The notes under the pieces: generated by a model
Database searches by the model: none
The model's input: the letters and a program-made list of their open reading frames with translations, nothing else
Told to the model about the DNA's origin: nothing
Made by a program: the position numbers and the translations under genes
NCBI RefSeq assembly: GCF_000231055.2
Contig: NZ_CM001466.1
Coordinates: 4,695,720-4,758,332 of the forward strand
Length of the DNA: 62,613 nt
Reading direction: 5' to 3'
From: Saccharomonospora azurea NA-128
Lineage (GTDB): Bacteria > Actinomycetota > Actinomycetes > Mycobacteriales > Pseudonocardiaceae
Part shown: positions 11,878 to 59,667 of the stretch, one piece after another
Layout: every line of letters begins with the position of its first letter
Numbering within the stretch: the first letter of the stretch is position 1

Positions 11878-11964
11878 ATGGGCGAACGCAGGAGCGCACG
11901 AGGACGCCGTAGCCGGTCCTCGGTAGTGGCCGCCGGGAGCCATCCCGCCGGCTTCGATCGATGA
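11878..11964 (+). CDS. Possible 28-codon Arg-rich leader ORF before pnp
   Basis: ATG 11878 opens a 28-codon frame starting [17 protein letters not shown], with seven Arg in the first 14 codons. GAGAG (11866-11870) is a modest ribosome site. Its stop TGA (11962-11964) overlaps an ATG at 11961 that is in frame with pnp (26 codons before the annotated pnp start). It may be a leader peptide coupling to pnp, or chance in GC-rich DNA. Conservation has not been tested. Confidence 0.2.
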
Positions 11965-12038
11965 CCGGCCTCGTACCTCGCGCGTACCCCGATGAGCGGG
12001 GAAGCGTCCGCCCGGACGTACGAGGAGTAACAACAGTC

Positions 12039-32364: not shown

Positions 32365-32439
32365 TGGTGCGCGATACTGGGATCGAACCAGTGACCTCTA
32401 CCGTGTCAAGGTAGCGCTCTCCCGCTGAGCTAATCGCGC
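32365..32439 (-). tRNA. tRNA-Val (anticodon GAC), CCA encoded
   Basis: Minus-strand cloverleaf: acceptor GCGCGAT pairs with ATCGCGC, D arm GCTCAGCGGGAGAGC, anticodon loop TTGACAC between CTACC and GGTAG, T arm CTGGTTCGATCCCAG, discriminator A and an encoded CCA. GAC reads GUC and GUU codons. It is the last tRNA before the terminator and shares D and T arms exactly with the Val tRNA at 33527. Confidence 0.97.
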
Positions 32440-32440
32440 G

Positions 32441-32512
32441 AGGCGGAGACGGGAATCGAACCCGTGTACAGGGCTTTGCAGGCCCTTGCCTGAACCACTC
32501 GGCCACTCCGCC
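32441..32512 (-). tRNA. tRNA-Cys (anticodon GCA)
   Basis: Minus-strand cloverleaf: acceptor GGCGGAG with CTCCGCC, anticodon loop CTGCAAA between AGGGC and GCCCT, T arm CGGGTTCGATTCCCG, discriminator T as in Cys tRNAs. CCA is not encoded. It lies one base from the Val tRNA and 55 bases from the Gly tRNA. Confidence 0.97.
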
Positions 32513-32567
32513 GTTGGTGTGGATCAAGCGCGAGCTCGATCCAACTGCGGAATGCCCGCCGCAGTCG

Positions 32568-32640
32568 AGCGGACGACGGGATTCGAACCCGCGACCCTCA
32601 CCTTGGCAAGGTGATGCGCTACCAGCTGCGCTACGTCCGC
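32568..32640 (-). tRNA. tRNA-Gly (anticodon GCC)
   Basis: Minus-strand cloverleaf: acceptor GCGGACG with CGTCCGC, anticodon loop TTGCCAA between TCACC and GGTGA, T arm CGGGTTCGAATCCCG, discriminator T. CCA is not encoded. First tRNA of the Gly-Cys-Val operon. Confidence 0.97.
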
Positions 32641-32702
32641 AATTTGCGACTCCGTGTCGCTCGGCCTTCCGGTCGGTGACCCGTCGTCGTCGTGTGGAAA
32701 GA

Positions 32703-32732
32703 ACTGTATCGGATGGCCGAAACGCCCTTCAC
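32703..32732 (-). promoter_or_regulatory. Possible promoter of the tRNA operon
   Basis: On the minus strand GTGAAG (32732-32727) and TACAGT (32708-32703) are 18 bases apart, about 60 bases before tRNA-Gly. The -10 matches well; the -35 is weak. Confidence 0.4.
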
Positions 32733-32767
32733 GCGGGGGGTGGTCATGCTTCGGTGCACGTCCATGA

Positions 32768-33193
32768 TCAGCCCAAATCGTGCGGGATGAGCCGCGTGAG
32801 CGCGTCGTCGACGTCGACCCACAGGTGCTCGTTGCCCGGCAGGACCACGTCGTAGGTCTGGTCGAGGAAGTCGGCCAGCTCCTGAGCCGACGCCTCGAAC
32901 ATCGCGTGACCCGACGGGGAGTTCAGCTCCACGAAGACCGAGTCGGGGTCCTCGATCGACGGCTTGAGGCGCACGTCGCCGTCGCCTGCTTCACCGAGCA
33001 GTCCGTCGGCCAGGAGGTCGCGGGCGAAGACCCACTCGACCCAGCCGGCCCGGCCGGTGCGGAACGCGGCCACGACCGCGTACGGGTCACGGGTGTCGTA
33101 CCGCAGTTCGACCTTCACCGGGACCGGAGGCGTGCGCGGTGCCAGAAGGTCGAAGACCGCCGTGGACCGGAGCGTGACGTGTTCGTTTCGCAT
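32768..33193 (-). CDS. ssgB: SsgA/SsgB family sporulation and cell division regulator
   Basis: A 141-residue SsgA-like protein. In Streptomyces SsgB recruits FtsZ to future septum sites during sporulation. The family marks are VKVELRYDTRDPYAVVAAF (about residues 27-45), VEWVFARDLLADGL (about 52-65), GDVRLKPS and the C-terminal AQELADFLDQTYDVVLPGNE. Such genes occur only in morphologically complex actinobacteria, which makes this a lifestyle marker. ATG 33193 follows GAAGGG on the minus strand. Which of the SsgA-G branches it belongs to is a guess; the length and lack of extra domains favour SsgB. It lies between two tRNA loci. Confidence 0.88.
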   Translation of the reverse strand: MRNEHVTLRSTAVFDLLAPRTPPVPVKVELRYDTRDPYAVVAAFRTGRAGWVEWVFARDLLADGLLGEAGDGDVRLKPSIEDPDSVFVELNSPSGHAMFEASAQELADFLDQTYDVVLPGNEHLWVDVDDALTRLIPHDLG

Positions 33194-33526
33194 GGTCGTT
33201 ACCCTTCTGCTCCCTTCCGGCCGGTTCGGCCGTGTCCTATGGGTGAGACGCGCAGGGGCGTCGGTTCGCTCTCTACGAACCTGAACATCACCCGAACGTG
33301 TTCTCCGTGGTGGGGCCCCGGTACATCCTGCTCACATCAACGAGCAGAAGGACAGGTAAGTCGCGCGAATGTTGCAGCAGTCGCGACCTCCGGTTCGGAT
33401 CCGCCCCGCGGGGCGAATGGCACCGACTCCGTGTGTCACCAGCCGAAATCCCGCCGCCACTCACGAAAGGGGACCCCACTGACGGGGCTCGATCAGCCTC
33501 CGCTACAGTGGTTTCCACAACGCAAG
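33194..33526. other. Intergenic region ssgB / tRNA-Val, no gene seen
   Basis: 333 bases upstream of ssgB (leftward) and tRNA-Val (rightward). It holds a GGTTCG-7-CGAACC inverted repeat at 33263-33281, 70 bases before the ssgB start and a candidate operator, a 12-bp GCCCCGCGGGGC palindrome near 33402, and the tRNA promoter at its right end. No coding frame with a ribosome site was found. Confidence 0.5.
33479..33509 (+). promoter_or_regulatory. Promoter of tRNA-Val(CAC)
   Basis: CTGACG (33479-33484) and TACAGT (33504-33509) with a 19-base gap; the -10 ends 17 bases before the tRNA 5' end. Confidence 0.5.
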
Positions 33527-33601
33527 GGGCGATTAGCTCAGCGGGAGAGCGCTTCGTTCACACCGAAGAGGTCACTGGTTCGATCCCAGTATCGCCCACC
33601 A
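33527..33601 (+). tRNA. tRNA-Val (anticodon CAC), CCA encoded
   Basis: Acceptor GGGCGAT with ATCGCCC, D arm GCTCAGCGGGAGAGC, anticodon loop TTCACAC between CTTCG and CGAAG, T arm CTGGTTCGATCCCAG, discriminator A and encoded CCA. CAC reads GUG. The D and T arms are identical to those of the GAC tRNA on the other strand, so the pair probably arose by duplication. Confidence 0.97.
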
Positions 33602-39644: not shown

Positions 39645-40786
39645 GGATCGGGATCGTGTGCCCGTACTCGTTCGACGTGCCCGGGGGAGTGCAGGGACAC
39701 GTCGTGGACCTCGCCAAGGCGCTGCGTTCACTCGGCCACACCGTCTCGGTGCTGGCGCCCGGTGACGACGGCGCCGCGCATCTTCCCGACTTCGTGCAGC
39801 CCGCCGGGCGTTCCCTCGGCATCCCCTACAACGGCTCGGTGGCGAGGCTGCAGTTCGGGCCGGTGTCCTACGCGCGGGTACGGCGTTGGCTCCGCGACAA
39901 CGAGTTCGACGTCCTGCACCTGCACGAGCCGACGGCGCCGAGCCTGTCGCTGCTCGCGCTCATGGTGGCCGAGGGACCCATCGTCGCGACGTTCCACACC
40001 TCCACGCCGCGGTCGCGCACGCTGGCGGCGTTCGAACCGGTGCTGCGCCCGCTACTGGAGAAGGTGACCGCACGGATCGCCGTGTCCGCGCTCGCGCGGC
40101 GCGTCCAGGTCGAACACCTCGGCGGGGACGCCGTGGAGATCCCCAACGGCGTCGACACGTCGTTCTTCTCCGGCGCCGAGCCGCTGGAGGGCTACCCCCG
40201 CGACGGGGGCACGATCGGATTCGTCGGCCGCTACACCGAACCCCGCAAGGGGATGGGCGTGCTCCTCGACGCGCTGCGTGTCCTCGCGCCGGAGCTGCCG
40301 GCGCTGCGGCTGCTCGTCGTCGGCCGCGGCGAGGCGGAGACGCTCCACCGCGAAGCGGGCCCCGAACTCGCGTCCCGGCTCGATCTGCTCGGCCAGGTGG
40401 ACGACGAGACCAAGGCGCGGGCTCTGCGCAGCGTGGACGTCTACTGCGCGCCGAACACCGGCGGCGAGAGCTTCGGCATGATCCTCACCGAGGCCATGGC
40501 GGCGGGCACTCCCGTCGTGGCCAGTGCGCTCGACTCCTTCCGCCGCGTGCTCGATGACGGCAAGGCGGGCGTGCTGGTGCCCACCGGCGACTCCGACGCG
40601 CTCGCGGACGTGCTGCGCGGGCTTCTCGCCGACCCGGTGCGGCGTGCCAGGCTCTCCGACGCGGCGACGGAACACGTCGCGCGCTACGACTGGGGCACCG
40701 TCGTGCGACAGGTTGTCCGGGTCTACGAGACGGCGATCGCGGCCGATCCGCGCAAGGTCGGCGCCGAGACCGGCGTCCTGCGATGA
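39641..40786 (+). CDS. pimA: Phosphatidylinositol alpha-mannosyltransferase
   Basis: A GT-B fold, GT4 family enzyme that transfers mannose from GDP-mannose to phosphatidylinositol, starting PIM and lipoarabinomannan-type lipids. In 381 residues: MRIGIVCPYSFDVPGGVQGH with the Gly-Gly loop, HLHEPTAPSLSLLAL, then the C-terminal domain with IGFVGRYTEPRKGMGVLLDA and the donor-site E-x7-E in GESFGMILTEAMAAGTPVV (about 284-302). ATG 39641 overlaps the PatA-like stop. The next gene overlaps its stop too. Confidence 0.95.
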   Translation: MRIGIVCPYSFDVPGGVQGHVVDLAKALRSLGHTVSVLAPGDDGAAHLPDFVQPAGRSLGIPYNGSVARLQFGPVSYARVRRWLRDNEFDVLHLHEPTAPSLSLLALMVAEGPIVATFHTSTPRSRTLAAFEPVLRPLLEKVTARIAVSALARRVQVEHLGGDAVEIPNGVDTSFFSGAEPLEGYPRDGGTIGFVGRYTEPRKGMGVLLDALRVLAPELPALRLLVVGRGEAETLHREAGPELASRLDLLGQVDDETKARALRSVDVYCAPNTGGESFGMILTEAMAAGTPVVASALDSFRRVLDDGKAGVLVPTGDSDALADVLRGLLADPVRRARLSDAATEHVARYDWGTVVRQVVRVYETAIAADPRKVGAETGVLR

Positions 40787-41292
40787 CCACACTGCTCGTG
40801 CTGGCGCTCGTCGCCGCACTGGTGATGGCGGGCGCGCTGTGGTTGGTCGCGACGGCCAACCGCCTCGACCGCCTGCACGTGCGGATGGACGCGGGCTGGG
40901 CCGCGCTCGACGCCGCGCTCGCGCGCCGAGCGGTGGTGGCGAGGGCGGTGACGGCGAGCGCACTGCGAGGCGACGACGCCGCGGCGTTGCGGGCCGCGGC
41001 GGACACGGCCGAGTCCGCCGCCCGGCCGGAGCGTGAGGCCGCGGAGAACGAGCTGACCCGCCGGCTCGCCGACGTCGACCGGAGCGTGTTGCCGGCCGCG
41101 CTCACCGACGAGTTGAACGACGCCGAGGAGCGCGTGGTCATCGCCCGGCGGGTCTACAACGACGCGGTGCGCGACGCCCTGGCGTTGCGGCGGCGTCGCC
41201 GCGTGCGGTACTTCCGCCTGGCGGGAACGGCCCCCACCCCGGAGTACTTCGAGATCGCCGAGCCAGATCTGGCGAACCCGCCGACCTCCTGA
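40783..41292 (+). CDS. LemA-like small membrane-anchored protein of the PIM cluster
   Basis: A 169-residue protein with one N-terminal membrane helix (LLVLALVAALVMAGALWLVA, residues about 4-23) followed by a long helical region, NRLDRLHVRMDAGWAALDAA and a second set of Ala/Glu/Arg helices with VARRVYNDAVRD, which resembles LemA-type bundles (the N-R-x-x-x-L and Y-N-x-x-V marks). The mycobacterial gene after pimA (Rv2609c) joins a similar membrane part to a NUDIX domain; no G-x5-E-x7-R-E-U-x-E-E NUDIX box occurs here or downstream. ATG 40783 overlaps the pimA stop. Function unknown. Confidence 0.7.
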   Translation: MTTLLVLALVAALVMAGALWLVATANRLDRLHVRMDAGWAALDAALARRAVVARAVTASALRGDDAAALRAAADTAESAARPEREAAENELTRRLADVDRSVLPAALTDELNDAEERVVIARRVYNDAVRDALALRRRRRVRYFRLAGTAPTPEYFEIAEPDLANPPTS

Positions 41293-41307
41293 CCCCCACT
41301 GCCCGCC

Positions 41308-41521
41308 CCCCGACATCGTGTCCGCGCTTCCCGTACGCGTGTCCGCACTTCCGGTACGCGTGTCCGCGTTTCCCGCACGGGTGTCGCCGGTGTCTGCGAC
41401 GCCGGGACGTCTCCGACGACACGACGTGCGTACGCGAACTGCCAACACGTGAACGCAGGCCGCGGACACGCGTACGCGAGGTGCGGACACGCGTGCGCAG
41501 GTCGCGGACACGATGTCGGGG
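41308..41521. repeat. 21-bp repeat element A (3 direct and 4 inverted units)
   Basis: The unit is GTGTCCGC, six variable bases, then CGYACGC, exactly 21 bp. Direct copies: 41318-41338, 41339-41359, 41360-41380. Inverted copies: 41428-41448, 41449-41469, 41470-41490, 41491-41511. All abut without spacers. The ends are CCCCGACATC (41308-41317) and its reverse complement (41512-41521), so the whole forms one long inverted structure around a 47-base centre. It lies between the converging LemA-like and EF-G2 genes. The same family recurs at 58600. Confidence 0.92.
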
Positions 41522-41548
41522 TTCCCAGGTGGGGGTGGGGCAGGCCGG

Positions 41549-43681
41549 TCAGGCCTTGGCGTGCTCCCGCGCCGCCGACTTCTGCGGGGCCGGCTCGTAG
41601 CGCGCGTGGCGGCGGGTGAAGCTCGCCCGGCCCGAGGTGAGGGACCGCAGGTCCACCGCGTATCGGACGAGCTCCTCCGCCGGCACCTCGGCGCGGATGA
41701 GGGTCGATCCGCCCTCCAGGGACTCGGTGCCGAGTACCCGTCCTCGCCGCGACGACAGATCGCCCAGCACGGTGCCCAGGTAGGAGTCGGGGAGTCGGAC
41801 GACGACCTCGTCGAGCGGTTCGAGCGCCACGAGCCCGGCCTTGGCGGCGGCGTCCTTCACGGCGAGGGCGCCGGCGGTCTGGAACGCCGCGTCGGAGGAG
41901 TCGACGCTGTGCGCCTTGCCGTCGAACAGGGTCACCCGCACGTCGACGACGGGATCGTCGCTGCCGATGCCGTTGCGCAGTTGCGCGCGCACGCCCTTCT
42001 CCACGCTGGGGATGAACTGGTGCGGCACGACACCGCCGACGATGCGGTCGACGAACTCCACTCCGGCGCCGCGTTCGACGGGTTCGACCGTGACGTCGCA
42101 GACCGCGTACTGCCCGTGCCCTCCGGACTGCTTGACGTGCCGCCCGTGCCCGTCGGCTCGGGTGCGGAACGTCGTCTTCCGGCTGGTCCGGACGGGTTCG
42201 GTGGTCACGTCGGCGCCGCCGGAGCGCAGCATCGACAGCACGACGTCGGCGTGGGCCTCGCCCATGCACCACAGCACGAGCTGGCGCGTTTCCGGGTTGC
42301 GTTCCAGCCGTAGCGTCGGGTCGCCCGCGACGAGCCGGGACAGGTTGCGGGCGAGCACGTCCTCGTCACTGCGGTTGCCTGCCACGACGGCGACGGGCAG
42401 CAGCGGCTCCGGCATCGCCCACGGTGTCATGAGCAGTGGGTCGCCGGGCTCGGACACGGTGTCGCCGGTCTCGGCGGACGTGAGCTTGGTCAGCGCGCAG
42501 AGGTCGCCGGCGACGCAGTGGGGCACCTCGCGGAGAGCGGCGCCGAGGGGCGAGTACAGGTGGGCGACGCGTTCGTCGGCGTCGTGGTCGTCGTGGCCTC
42601 GGTCGGTGAGGCCATGGCCGCTGATGTGCACGGTGCGTTCGGGGCGCAGTGTCCCCGAGAACACGCGCACCAGCGACACGCGGCCGACGTAGGAGTCGAC
42701 GGCCGTGTGCACGACCTCGGCGGCGAGGGGCCCGTCGGGATCGGACGACAACCGGGGGTGGGGGATGCCGTCGGGTGTGGTGGCGACGGGCGGTGCGTGT
42801 TCCAGCGGCGACGGGAAGGCGCGGGCGATGCCGTCGAGGATCTCCGCCGTGCCTACTCCGGTCTCCGCGCAGGCCGGGATGACCGGATGGAACGAGCCTC
42901 GGGCCACCGCTTTCTCGAGGTCGGTGACGAGGGTGTCCTCGGAGATCGGTTCGCCCGCGAGGTAACGCTCCATCAGCGACTCGTCCTCGCTCTCCGCGAT
43001 GATCCCCTCGATCAGTGCGTCGCGTGCGGCGGTCAGTCGCTCGGCGTCGTCGGAGCCGACGTCGCCGATCCGCGGGGGAGAGCCGTGGGAGTAGTCGTAG
43101 CGCCGCCCGGTCACGAGCCCGACCAGCGCGGGCTCACCGTCGCCGGTCGGGAGGTAGAGCGGCGAGACTCCGGCCCCGAAGGCCTCCTGGCAGGCCGTGA
43201 TCGTCGCGTCGACGTCCGCGCGCGCGTGGTCGAGGCGCGAGACGACGACGGCGCGGGGGAGTTCCACGGCGGCGCACTCCTCCCACAGGGACACGGTCGC
43301 GGGATCGACTCCGTGGCCTGCGCTGACCACGAACAACGCGGCGTCGGCGGCGCGCAGTCCCGCGCGGACCTCCCCGACGAAGTCGGCGTAGCCGGGGGTG
43401 TCGATGAAGTTGATCTTGACGTTGCCGTGGACGACGGGGGCGACGGCGAGCCCGACGGAACGTTGCTGGCGGATGGCGGCCTGGTCGTGGTCGCACACCG
43501 TGGTGCCCTCGACGACGGATCCGGCTCGGTTGATGGCGTTCGCCGCGACGAGCAGGGCCTCGGTGAGGGTGGTCTTCCCGGATCCGGAGGGACCCACGAG
43601 TGCGACGTTGCGTACCTTGCCGGGGTCGTCCACGGCGAACCCGGCCGCCGAGCCGCTGGTCTTGACGGTCTTCTCGGCCAT
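41549..43681 (-). CDS. fusA2: Elongation factor G-like protein (EF-G2)
   Basis: A 710-residue EF-G paralogue with all five EF-G domains but divergent GTPase motifs. G1 is VGPSGSGKTTLTEALL (about 28-43) where EF-G has A-H-x-D-x-G-K-T; G3 is DTPGYADFVG; and in place of N-K-x-D there is SRLDHA. Domain IV has GHGQYAVCDVTVEP and the C-terminus FTRRHARYEPAP. Such EF-G2 proteins (Rv0120c-like) in mycobacteria do not support normal translocation, so role is unclear. ATG 43681 follows AGGAGG; the frame stays open 90 bases upstream without a better start. Alone, divergent from pdxS. Confidence 0.9.
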   Translation of the reverse strand: MAEKTVKTSGSAAGFAVDDPGKVRNVALVGPSGSGKTTLTEALLVAANAINRAGSVVEGTTVCDHDQAAIRQQRSVGLAVAPVVHGNVKINFIDTPGYADFVGEVRAGLRAADAALFVVSAGHGVDPATVSLWEECAAVELPRAVVVSRLDHARADVDATITACQEAFGAGVSPLYLPTGDGEPALVGLVTGRRYDYSHGSPPRIGDVGSDDAERLTAARDALIEGIIAESEDESLMERYLAGEPISEDTLVTDLEKAVARGSFHPVIPACAETGVGTAEILDGIARAFPSPLEHAPPVATTPDGIPHPRLSSDPDGPLAAEVVHTAVDSYVGRVSLVRVFSGTLRPERTVHISGHGLTDRGHDDHDADERVAHLYSPLGAALREVPHCVAGDLCALTKLTSAETGDTVSEPGDPLLMTPWAMPEPLLPVAVVAGNRSDEDVLARNLSRLVAGDPTLRLERNPETRQLVLWCMGEAHADVVLSMLRSGGADVTTEPVRTSRKTTFRTRADGHGRHVKQSGGHGQYAVCDVTVEPVERGAGVEFVDRIVGGVVPHQFIPSVEKGVRAQLRNGIGSDDPVVDVRVTLFDGKAHSVDSSDAAFQTAGALAVKDAAAKAGLVALEPLDEVVVRLPDSYLGTVLGDLSSRRGRVLGTESLEGGSTLIRAEVPAEELVRYAVDLRSLTSGRASFTRRHARYEPAPQKSAAREHAKA

Positions 43682-57821: not shown

Positions 57822-58595
57822 ATGAGCGACGGGTTCGAGTTCCGCAGGCACGGTGAGATCGCGAGGCTCACGTTCGCACGGCCGGAGAAGATGAACGCCA
57901 TCCGCCACGAGATGTGGTCGGCCATCCCGGATGTGGTCGCCGAGGTCGAGGCGGACGCCGCGGTGAAGGTGCTGGTCGTGACCGGTGCCGGGGAGCACTT
58001 CTCGGCGGGTGCGGACATCGGCGAGTTCCGCGCGTTGCGGTCGACGGCCGAGGGAGCGGTGAACTATGACCGCGCGGTGACCGCTGCGGTGGAGGCGCTC
58101 GGCAGCATGCGCAAGCCGAGCATCGCGATGATCCAGGGCAACTGCATCGGCGGTGGGTGCCAGGTCGCGGTGGCGTGCGACGTGCGGTTCGCGGCGGCGG
58201 ACGCACGGTTCGGCATCACGCCCGCGAAGCTCGGGATCGTCTACGACTTCCTGTCCACGCGGCAGCTCGTCGCGCTCGTCGGACCGGCCCACGCTCGGTA
58301 CCTGCTGCTGTCGGCGCGTCTGGTGGGCGCGGACCGCGCCGCGGAGATGGGGCTGGTCAACGAGGTGGTCGATCGGGAGCTGCTCGAGAAGACCACGATG
58401 GAGTTCGCGGAGACTGTGTGCTCGCGCTCTCAGACGGCCGTGCGGAGCATGAACGAGATCATCGGGCGCATCCTCGCAGGTCAGCGGGAGTCCGACGCGG
58501 AGATCGAGCGGCTTCGGAGCGACGCGGTCCGCAGCGCCGACTACGCCGAAGGGGTCGCCGCCTTCCTGGAACGCCGCCCGCCCCGCTTCGCCTGA
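57822..58595 (+). CDS. Crotonase-fold protein (enoyl-CoA hydratase/isomerase family)
   Basis: A 257-residue crotonase-superfamily protein. The CoA-binding and oxyanion segments are present: LTFARPEKMNAIRHEMW, VTGAGEHFSAGADIGEFRAL, and QGNCIGGGCQVAVACDVRFA. Both acid-base glutamates of true hydratases are missing: GGGC is followed by Gln where Glu144 is expected, and FGITPAKLGIVYDF has Ala where Glu164 is expected. It may be an isomerase, decarboxylase-like or other crotonase. ATG 57822 is chosen; TTG 57816 is 6 bases upstream. It lies 40 bases after rel. The stop is followed 4 bases later by repeat element B. Confidence 0.85.
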   Translation: MSDGFEFRRHGEIARLTFARPEKMNAIRHEMWSAIPDVVAEVEADAAVKVLVVTGAGEHFSAGADIGEFRALRSTAEGAVNYDRAVTAAVEALGSMRKPSIAMIQGNCIGGGCQVAVACDVRFAAADARFGITPAKLGIVYDFLSTRQLVALVGPAHARYLLLSARLVGADRAAEMGLVNEVVDRELLEKTTMEFAETVCSRSQTAVRSMNEIIGRILAGQRESDAEIERLRSDAVRSADYAEGVAAFLERRPPRFA

Positions 58596-58599
58596 CACC

Positions 58600-58750
58600 G
58601 TGTCCGCGTGCTGCGCACGCGTGTCCGCACTTCGCGTACGCCTGTCGGGGGCTTTGACATCGTGTCCGCGGTCTGTGCACGCATGTTCGCGTCGCACGGC
58701 GCGGACACGCGTACGGGAAGTGCGGACACGCGTACGGGAAGTGCGGACAC
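58600..58750. repeat. 21-bp repeat element B
   Basis: Same unit as element A. Direct copies at 58600-58620, 58621-58641 and, after a 20-base piece ending GACATC, 58662-58682; a degenerate copy at 58683-58700; then inverted: an 8-base partial (58701-58708) and two identical full copies at 58709-58729 and 58730-58750. It fills the spacer between the converging crotonase-like and cyclophilin genes, just before a strong terminator. Confidence 0.92.
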
Positions 58751-58757
58751 GATGCAC

Positions 58758-58789
58758 AAGGGCCGCACCCGCGGGCGGGTGCGGCCCTT
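58758..58789. terminator. Bidirectional terminator between crotonase-like and cyclophilin genes
   Basis: AAGGGCCGCACCCG and CGGGTGCGGCCCTT are 14-bp perfect arms with loop CGGG. On each strand the stem ends in TT. Its place between two converging genes suits termination in both directions. Confidence 0.88.
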
Positions 58790-58800
58790 GACAGACGTCG

Positions 58801-59667
58801 TCAGCCCTCGACGGTGACGTCGGTGAACGTCACCTCGGTGAGCGGCTTGCCGCCACCCGGGCTCGGGTCGAAGGCGCCGTCGTGGCCTGCGCGGGCGACC
58901 TCGTCGATCACTTTCAGGCCCTCGTCGTCGATGGCGCCGAACACGGTGTAGTCCGGGGGCAGCGGCGCGTCGCCGAACACCATGAAGAACTGGCTGCCGT
59001 TCGTGTCCGGGCCGCTGTTGGCCATCGCGAGGACGCCGCGGCCGTAGGTCAGCTCGTCGAACGTCTCGTCGGCGAACGTGTAGCCGGGGCCACCGGTGCC
59101 CTGGCCGGTCGGGTCGCCGCACTGGAGCATCTGCAGGCCCTCGGTACCGATGCGGTGGCAGCTCGTGTCGGTGTAGTAGCCCTCTTCGGACAGGTGCACG
59201 AAGCTGTTCACGGTGCACGGCGCGAGCGCCCGGTCGAGCTCGAGGCCGATGTCGCCGACGTTGCTGTGCAGCGTGACGTACACGGTGCCCTCGGAGGACA
59301 CGTCGTCGCCGTCCGGCACGCTGACGTCCTTGGCGGGCTCGCCCGACTTCGTGTACTCGCACGACGTCGGGTTCGGCAACGGCTCGGGCCGCGAGGCGAG
59401 CTCGACGCGTTCGGTGGGGATCTGGATGTCCTGGGACTGCCCGTCCGGCGTGGAGGCCGACGACGAGCCGTCGGCCGCGTCGGCGTTGTCCGCCGCGCCG
59501 TCGCCGCGCGTTGCCAGGATCACGATGAGCCCGGCGACCACGACCACGGCACCCACCGTGACCCCGACTCCGACGATCCTGCGTCGCTTCGCCCGCTCGG
59601 CACGGCGGGCGAGCTGCCGTTCGAGCTTGCGTTTCGCGGCCTCGCGGCGCTGCTGGTTGGTCGCCAC
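58801..59667 (-). CDS. ppiB: Membrane-anchored cyclophilin-type peptidyl-prolyl isomerase
   Basis: A 288-residue PPIase placed outside the membrane. A basic N-terminal segment (MATNQQRREAAKRKLERQLA) is followed by one helix (VGVGVTVGAVVVVAGLIVIL, about 33-52), an acidic Ser/Asp linker and the cyclophilin domain with VGDIGLELDRALAPCTVNSF, CHRIGTEGLQMLQCGDPTGQ and GSQFFMVFGDAPLPPDYTVF. The active-site Arg of the F-H-R-V motif is retained while Phe is Cys; three further Cys suggest disulfides. GTG 59667 follows AGGAGGG. Position next to rel and an MBL hydrolase equals Rv2582 in mycobacteria. Confidence 0.92.
   Translation of the reverse strand: MATNQQRREAAKRKLERQLARRAERAKRRRIVGVGVTVGAVVVVAGLIVILATRGDGAADNADAADGSSSASTPDGQSQDIQIPTERVELASRPEPLPNPTSCEYTKSGEPAKDVSVPDGDDVSSEGTVYVTLHSNVGDIGLELDRALAPCTVNSFVHLSEEGYYTDTSCHRIGTEGLQMLQCGDPTGQGTGGPGYTFADETFDELTYGRGVLAMANSGPDTNGSQFFMVFGDAPLPPDYTVFGAIDDEGLKVIDEVARAGHDGAFDPSPGGGKPLTEVTFTDVTVEG

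What the first reader, a model, noticed from the sequence alone, without database searches (positions are those of the whole stretch)
41308..41521. Exact 21-bp units arranged as a large direct-then-inverted element between converging genes
Seven abutting units (3 direct, 4 inverted) keep a strict 21-bp period with conserved GTGTCCGC and CGYACGC ends around six variable bases. The array is closed by the terminal inverted repeat CCCCGACATC. Such a two-armed tandem layout is unlike ordinary REP sequences, which are single palindromes. Two helix turns per unit suggests a protein that reads one DNA face, or an extended RNA cruciform. Placement between two stops suggests a role in insulating or terminating converging transcription. 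I know of no named element with this build, though I could not search.
Basis: partly seen in the sequence, partly recalled or inferred. Interest (0 to 1): 0.75.

Follow-up and report, generated by a model that had tools for sequence, protein, structure and literature searches.

The report
Gene-end tandem repeat family in Saccharomonospora
A 21-letter DNA motif, repeated head to tail and then mirrored around a centre, sits just after the ends of many genes in one group of actinomycete bacteria; it behaves like the known REP/BIME repeats of other bacteria but has its own sequence and build.

Summary
The array is real: three direct and four inverted 21-bp units (0-2 mismatches, so not exact) around a 47-bp centre, inside a perfect 10-bp inverted repeat, between convergent genes. 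It belongs to a family: the genome holds 223 exact units (reversed control 0) and 347 at up to one mismatch (control 5). The window has a second array at 58600-58750. Relatives occur in Saccharomonospora sp. NB11, Prauserella shujinwangii, Amycolatopsis arida and Qaidamihabitans albus. The commonest build is direct units, a 26-bp core, inverted units.

Of 125 arrays read, 48 lie between convergent genes, 60 tandem, 11 divergent. Of the 108 convergent or tandem ones, 92 have a stop codon within 30 nt. Several array positions are shared between species; distant genus members carry an unrelated repeat at the same junction.

Arms grow by unit duplication. Hexamers and core stem show no pairing-type covariation, although whole arrays fold strongly. 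Single units are weak imperfect palindromes. Three unit-rich genomes lack a Y1 (RAYT-type) transposase.

Best reading: a REP/BIME-like extragenic repeat family, spread and homogenised by an unknown process, kept at gene 3' ends, where it may act as a structured transcript end. New variant of a known kind; function untested.

The parts
41308..41317 (.). left outer tip CCCCGACATC
   Evidence: exact inverted repeat with 41512-41521; related tips recur in part of the family
41318..41380 (+). direct arm: three abutting 21-bp units
   Evidence: 0, 1, 1 mismatches to GTGTCCGC-N6-CGYACGC
41381..41427 (.). degenerate 47-bp centre, in size the 26-bp core plus one decayed unit (inferred)
   Evidence: sequence; of 76 direct-to-inverted gaps read, 40 are 26 bp and 7 are 45-47 bp
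41428..41511 (-). inverted arm: four abutting 21-bp units
   Evidence: 2, 2, 0, 0 mismatches
41512..41521 (.). right outer tip GATGTCGGGG
40783..41292 (+). upstream gene, 169 aa, no Pfam match at E <= 0.001
41549..43681 (-). convergent gene, elongation factor G-like
   Evidence: EFG_IV 7e-36, GTP_EFTU 8e-35
58600..58641 (+). second array: two direct units
58662..58682 (+). second array: direct unit beside the core
58683..58708 (.). 26-bp core ATGTTCGC-GTCGCACGGC-GCGGACAC
58709..58750 (-). second array: two inverted units
57822..58595 (+). enoyl-CoA hydratase-like gene ending 4 nt before the second array
   Evidence: ECH_1 9e-50; distance
58801..59667 (-). cyclophilin-type isomerase gene converging on the second array
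   Evidence: Pro_isomerase 5e-27

Best explanation
It is one copy of a REP/BIME-like extragenic repeat family of Saccharomonospora and a few other Pseudonocardiaceae. The commonest module is 68 bp: direct unit, 26-bp directional core (GTGTTCGC-GTCGCACGGC-GCGGACAC, in either orientation), inverted unit. Arms lengthen by tandem duplication of the 21-bp unit. Shown: the build, abundance, position just after stop codons, scarcity between divergent genes, sharing of positions between species, and between-genome differences in the variable hexamer. Inferred: copies spread and are homogenised by an unknown process (a lost or unrecognised transposase, or gene conversion) and are kept where they disturb neither coding sequence nor promoters. 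Also inferred: when transcribed, the two arms fold into a long GC-rich hairpin that may work in both directions as a transcript-end structure (pausing or termination, shielding from 3' exonucleases, perhaps slowing ribosomes at the stop), as proposed for REPs.
For: Units: 223 exact, 347 at <=1 mismatch; reversed-pattern controls 0 and 5. Of 12 genus members 5 have 64-223 exact units and 7 have 0-3. Build: 40 of 76 direct-to-inverted gaps are exactly 26 bp; of 79 two-armed arrays 70 are outer >..<, 5 outer <..>, 4 other; 46 of 125 are one-armed. Arm growth: 44 of 294 abutting pairs have identical hexamers against 2.5% of random pairs. Position: chi-square p = 2e-13 against junction counts and 1e-22 against intergenic bp; 50 of 60 tandem arrays nearer the stop; 92 of 108 with a stop within 30 nt. 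Fold z = -9.3 and -7.2. Inheritance: 14 of 33 NB11 arrays have both flanks in fetched own-genome loci, and 13 of these 14 have an array there (those loci were mostly fetched because they hold arrays).
Against: No RAYT-type gene in three of five rich genomes. No target duplication seen, in a coarse fixed-offset test. Core-stem Watson-Crick counts lie within 2.4 of shuffled means at all eight pairs, and mirrored hexamers match less than random ones (0.385 vs 0.429), against selection on a precise hairpin. Core orientation is balanced in tandem contexts (F++ 4, F-- 4, R++ 4, R-- 6). Single units fold only a little better than shuffled. 11 of 119 intergenic arrays lie between divergent predicted starts. 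No GTAG or CGTC tag as a fixed end. No RNA data.
Confidence: 0.6

Rival explanations
1. Dedicated bidirectional terminator or insulator of converging genes: arrays are selected at convergent junctions to end transcription, as an untailed hairpin or by loading Rho on the C-rich first arm.
For: Convergent enrichment and stop proximity. Fold z = -9.3 and -7.2. In the first 30 nt after the stop C minus G is 0.144 in array genes (118) against 0.032 in controls (117), p = 6e-8; at 30-60 nt 0.048 vs -0.021, p = 7e-5; at 60-100 nt no difference. One-armed arrays near stops have GTGTCC first in 13 of 16 tandem and 14 of 22 convergent cases.
Against: 60 of 125 arrays are tandem; none of 38 convergent junctions in the evenly spaced stretches was scored with an array (one array abuts such a junction, L146). 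Two of four rich relatives lack the array at this junction. No T-tailed hairpin. No pairing covariation.
Confidence: 0.2
2. Protein-binding array: a sequence-specific DNA-binding protein reads the block CGYACGCGTGTCCGC every two helical turns and forms a nucleoprotein boundary at gene ends.
For: Primary sequence is what is conserved: block identity 127 of 140, core 95 of 130, hexamer 34 of 60 in five orthologous modules (detection favours the block). 294 of 323 same-strand neighbours abut exactly and 15 more are 19-21 bp apart.
Against: Period and register also follow from simple tandem duplication. No candidate protein was found or sought systematically. The oriC region has TTGTCCACA boxes and no GTGTCCGC, so DnaA is not suggested.
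Confidence: 0.12
3. Miniature transposon (MITE or REPIN) currently moved by a transposase encoded in the genome.
For: Dispersed, directional 68-bp module in both orientations; inverted ends; patchy distribution.
Against: Y1_Tnp absent from G001, G009 and G010. The only rve-domain gene of the own genome has no unit within its fetched locus. No target duplication seen. Other transposase families were not searched.
Confidence: 0.08

Closest known systems
REP sequences and BIMEs (GTAG- and CGTC-tagged super-families)
   Same: High copy number, extragenic, downstream of coding regions in unidirectional and convergent spaces, units often paired in opposite orientation, some families species-specific, CGTC group said to lack a dedicated transposase (PMC3733652, abstract and part 1 of 8 read). 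The unit has an imperfect 7-bp dyad.
   Different: No fixed GTAG or CGTC end; unit only weakly palindromic; head-to-tail arms at exact 21-bp period; 26-bp core; actinomycete host. 'Actinobacteria' and 'Actinomycet' do not occur in the main text of PMC3733652. PMC12306157 does list tool-predicted REPs for three Actinomycetota genomes, none of them Saccharomonospora (passages).
REPINs (REP doublets forming hairpins) with RAYTs
   Same: Inverted doublet with spacer, predicted to form a hairpin; evenly spaced tandem REP arrays also reported (PMC3116915, abstract and section 12)
   Different: Y1_Tnp absent from three rich genomes; long head-to-tail arms are common
Intergenic stem-loop families at CDS 3' ends (Bor, Ype, Efa)
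   Same: Stem-loops prefer convergent spaces and the 50 bp after stop codons (PMC1590033, passages)
   Different: Other hosts and sequences; no 21-bp tandem arms in the passages seen
   Same: Gene-end position and direct-then-inverted layout; at the orthologous junction in G006, G007 and G011
   Different: Unrelated sequence, 30-bp period; exact pattern absent from the five rich GTGTCCGC genomes

Membership tests
REP / BIME | high copy number, mainly extragenic | tested here: met
   223 exact units; 4 of 125 arrays scored inside predicted genes
REP / BIME | downstream of coding regions, in unidirectional and convergent spaces | tested here: met
REP / BIME | 20-40 bp unit that is itself a palindrome | tested here: inconclusive
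   Six of seven symmetric position pairs can pair in 94-100% of 349 units, one (a G-T pair in the consensus) by wobble, and the fifth never. Stability is barely above shuffled: -4.46 vs -4.09, 43% of shuffles as stable; other strand -5.70 vs -4.45, 30%
REP / BIME | unpaired GTAG or CGTC tag at one end | tested here: not met
   logo of 190 outer ends has no fixed tetranucleotide; only the last base (C, 94%) is nearly fixed
REP / BIME | units in opposite orientation forming larger structures | tested here: met
   70 of 79 two-armed arrays outer >..<; fold z -9.3, -7.2
REPIN | RAYT-type (Y1) transposase in the genome | tested here: not met
   PF01797: one match each in G000 and G003, none in G001, G009, G010 (98, 82, 107 units); G006 one and G008 two matches with 0 and 3 units
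MITE | terminal inverted repeats with target-site duplication | tested here: inconclusive
   inverted arms present; direct flank similarity 0.268 vs 0.248 shuffled, 107 of 1000 shuffles as high, one fixed offset only
intrinsic terminator | GC-rich hairpin followed by a T tract | tested here: not met
   0 terminator-like sites in 40800-42000, both strands
functional terminator or 3'-end stabiliser | RNA ends or stability change at arrays | not testable with these tools
   no RNA data

The most novel reading that the evidence does not exclude
Gene ends in this clade carry a nucleoprotein boundary: a sequence-specific protein binds the 15-bp block once every two helical turns along both arms and marks the border between neighbouring transcription units. 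Sister lineages keep such gene-end sites but use another repeat there (family 2), so the boundary function outlives the sequence that carries it.
Probability: 0.1. Interest if true: 0.75.

Novelty: new variant of a known kind. Interest (0 to 1): 0.45.

Why it matters
The REP families in the papers seen are mostly proteobacterial. A high-copy actinomycete family with a regular 21-bp build, no RAYT in three rich genomes, positions shared between species and an unrelated counterpart at the same junction in distant genus members makes it possible to ask why bacterial gene ends collect such repeats, and whether they shape transcript ends where canonical terminators are few (reported for M. tuberculosis, another actinomycete; PMC10937400, passages).

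Tried and rejected
RAYT/REPIN mobilisation as the general cause: three of five rich genomes lack Y1_Tnp. Composite transposon (one-armed arrays on both sides of a gene): five such or neighbouring genes tested encode oxidoreductase, two methyltransferases, YjbR and hydrolase domains. Tn7/Mu/IS21-like parent (idea recalled): the only rve-domain gene found in the own genome has no unit in its 3.4-kb locus. DnaA-box titration (recalled resemblance): an 8-kb oriC stretch has TTGTCCACA and no GTGTCCGC. Pairing covariation in the core stem: none beyond shuffled (49 oriented cores used, 11 of unclear orientation dropped). Terminal inverted repeat or target duplication beyond the tip: none on average. 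Rfam at gathering thresholds: no family over the array. Sequence strings in print: 1 paper matched one 12-letter string, an rRNA-processing paper on Sinorhizobium seen as a listing only. Text searches listed no paper that by title or abstract start names this family; most subscription papers are not in that library. One search was a failed script, rerun. My note said 54 of 60 tandem arrays were nearer the stop; the checked count is 50 of 60.

Full report
OBSERVATION. The seven units are present: three direct at 41318-41380 and four inverted at 41428-41511, period 21 within each arm, 0-2 mismatches, a degenerate 47-bp centre, and an exact 10-bp inverted repeat outside (41308-41317 / 41512-41521). 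The predicted genes on both sides end towards the array, 25 and 37 nt from the outer units.

ABUNDANCE. The window is 4695720-4758332 of a single 4763852-base contig. That genome has 223 exact units (102 forward, 121 reverse; reversed-pattern control 0) and 347 at up to one mismatch (control 5). Of 12 genus members, own included, five are rich (G000 223, G010 107, G001 98, G009 82, G003 64) and seven have 0-3. Of 298 genomes drawn from the family, 60 have a match; as I read the list, besides the five rich ones only G031 (19), G089 (14), both of genus g21, and G020 (9) exceed three, and the rest have one or two (G008 three); the reversed control gives 0 or 1 per strand. In the named genome collection, 50 stretches carry a unit directly followed by another GTGTCCGC, all of them in Saccharomonospora sp. 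NB11, Prauserella shujinwangii, Amycolatopsis arida and Qaidamihabitans albus; the tool warns that near relatives of the source may be left out, and unit-rich G001, G009 and G010 do not appear there by a name I can match, so this list is partial.

SAMPLE. I read 125 distinct arrays with 535 units: 60 own genome, 33 NB11/G003, 10 P. shujinwangii, 9 Q. albus, 6 A. arida, 3 G009, 3 G010, 1 G001. They come from the window, L031-L080 and L121-L200; identical copies were dropped. Most loci were fetched because they hold a unit; the syntenic stretches and 14 evenly spaced own-genome stretches were not. An array had to contain a unit with at most one mismatch. Genes were called with a codon-usage script of my own.

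ANATOMY. The unit logo (535 units) is GTGTCCGC, six variable bases, CGYACGC; the base before an outermost unit is C in 94% of 190 ends. Of 323 same-strand neighbours 294 abut exactly and 15 more are 19-21 bp apart, about one missing unit. Of 76 direct-to-inverted gaps 40 are exactly 26 bp and 7 are 45-47 bp. The 26-bp core reads GTGTTCGC-GTCGCACGGC-GCGGACAC or its reverse complement; of 60 cores collected more loosely, 28 are F, 21 R and 11 unclear. In this genome, after orienting the cores, the left unit's hexamer ends in TG in 17 of 23 and the right one has C at hexamer position 5 in 20 of 23; in the other genomes the right side is mixed (11 and 13 of 26). Arms grow by tandem duplication: 44 of 294 abutting pairs have identical hexamers against 2.5% of random pairs, mean identity 0.51 against 0.429; hexamers mirrored across the core match less than random (0.385, 123 pairs). 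Hexamer preferences differ between genomes: position 9 is A in all units read from the syntenic stretches of G009, G001 and G010 (6, 6 and 13 units), A or G in G000 and NB11, C or G in P. shujinwangii; the genome-wide listing of G009 is mostly A with a minority of G. A single unit is a weak imperfect palindrome: six of seven symmetric position pairs can pair in 94-100% of 349 units and the fifth in none, but it folds only a little better than shuffled (-4.46 vs -4.09; other strand -5.70 vs -4.45).

POSITION. 48 arrays lie between convergent, 60 between tandem and 11 between divergent predicted genes, 4 inside predicted genes, 2 at edges. The junction proportions in the evenly spaced stretches are 38:172:40 (chi-square p = 2e-13; for the 58 intergenic own-genome arrays alone p = 5e-5). 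In tandem spaces 50 of 60 are nearer the stop, 35 within 0-15 nt of it, and 1 within 0-15 nt of a start. Of 156 stop-facing array ends 91 lie 0-15 nt from the stop, with a peak of 19 at exactly 4 nt; of 118 ends within 30 nt, 104 have GTGTCC facing the stop, which partly follows from the two-armed layout. Among one-armed arrays near stops this holds in 13 of 16 tandem and 14 of 22 convergent cases. TGA is followed by C in 80 of 111 array-bearing genes against 263 of 546 controls (p = 4e-6), while stop-codon choice itself does not differ (p = 0.2). Whether this is insertion preference or a C-rich tip of the element is open; a tip resembling CCCCGACATC recurs mainly in this genome (22 of 68 far tips fit YGA[CA]RYC, other genomes 4 of 66).

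COMPARATIVE HISTORY. At the junction of the finding, G000, G009 and G010 have arrays of different size, G003 and G001 have 7-8 bp, and G006, G007 and G011 carry the unrelated repeat GTGAAGGNCYCCTTCNCTGCGT. That second family has 59, 29 and 29 exact units in G006, G007 and G011, 5 in G026 and none in the other 57 of 61 genomes; 21 clusters read in loci fetched for it in G006 lie 12 convergent, 6 tandem, 3 divergent. At the second junction all five rich genomes have arrays of different unit number, and a third, tandem junction has units in G009 and G010 only at the detection threshold, with decayed remains in G001. Of 33 NB11 arrays 14 have both flanks in fetched own-genome loci and 13 of these have an array there; of 25 arrays of the three other named species, one (Q. 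albus) does. The fetched loci were mostly chosen for arrays, so 13 of 14 overstates conservation, while 13 of 33 is a floor. In five orthologous 68-bp modules identity is 127 of 140 in blocks, 95 of 130 in the core and 34 of 60 in hexamers (detection favours the blocks).

MECHANISM. Whole arrays fold strongly (window junction -178 kcal/mol, z = -9.3; second array z = -7.2; DNA strand of the first z = -9.0), but tests for selection on pairing are negative: core-stem Watson-Crick counts lie within 2.4 of shuffled means at all eight pairs, mirrored hexamers do not match, and core orientation relative to tandem genes is balanced. What is conserved is primary sequence and order. This fits a repeat family that multiplies or homogenises by sequence and is retained at gene ends. 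[quoted passage not shown] The C-rich first 60 nt after the stop would suit Rho loading. None of this is shown here. Against a dedicated insulator: none of 38 convergent junctions in the evenly spaced stretches was scored with an array, although one array (L146) abuts such a junction and runs into the predicted gene end.

CLASSIFICATION. It works like REP/BIME repeats in distribution and layout. Of the features tested, extragenic abundance, 3'-end position and inverted arrangement are met, palindromic unit is inconclusive, the GTAG/CGTC tag is not met, and the RAYT association of REPINs is not met. I therefore call it a new variant of a known kind, extragenic 3'-end repeats, and do not file it as a REP.

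LIMITS. Gene calls are unsupervised, so some of the 11 divergent and 4 in-gene cases may be errors. Genome-wide place lists were cut off, so own-genome arrays were sampled mainly through forward-strand exact units. No expression data.

Noticed in passing
L099, L100, L102 (G006, G007, G011); L209-L228: A second, unrelated gene-end repeat family (GTGAAGGNCYCCTTCNCTGCGT, 30-bp period, containing GAAGG/CCTTC) in distant genus members, at the junction that holds the window array.
   Followed up: partly
L115 (G005), about 1358-1501: A third tandem repeat (about 22 bp, CGAGTCGCCCCGAGGCGTCCGG-like) directly after a stop codon in another genus member.
   Followed up: no
L047 4389-4564 and L064 6608-6759 (Prauserella shujinwangii): Two arrays lie inside predicted reading frames near their 3' ends; 21 bp is seven codons, so an array can be read through as protein repeats, or the gene calls are wrong.
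   Followed up: no
window 58758-58789: A separate GC-rich hairpin (AAGGGCCGCACCC...GGGTGCGGCCCTT) beside the second array; G003 has a diverged hairpin at the same place.
   Followed up: partly
window 11912-11969 and 32368-33598: Actino-pnp cis-regulatory RNA (RF01688, 65.1 bits) and four tRNA genes.
   Followed up: no
G001 genome (one search counts): Exact units are more strand-skewed (26 forward, 72 reverse) than in G000, G003, G009 or G010.
   Followed up: no
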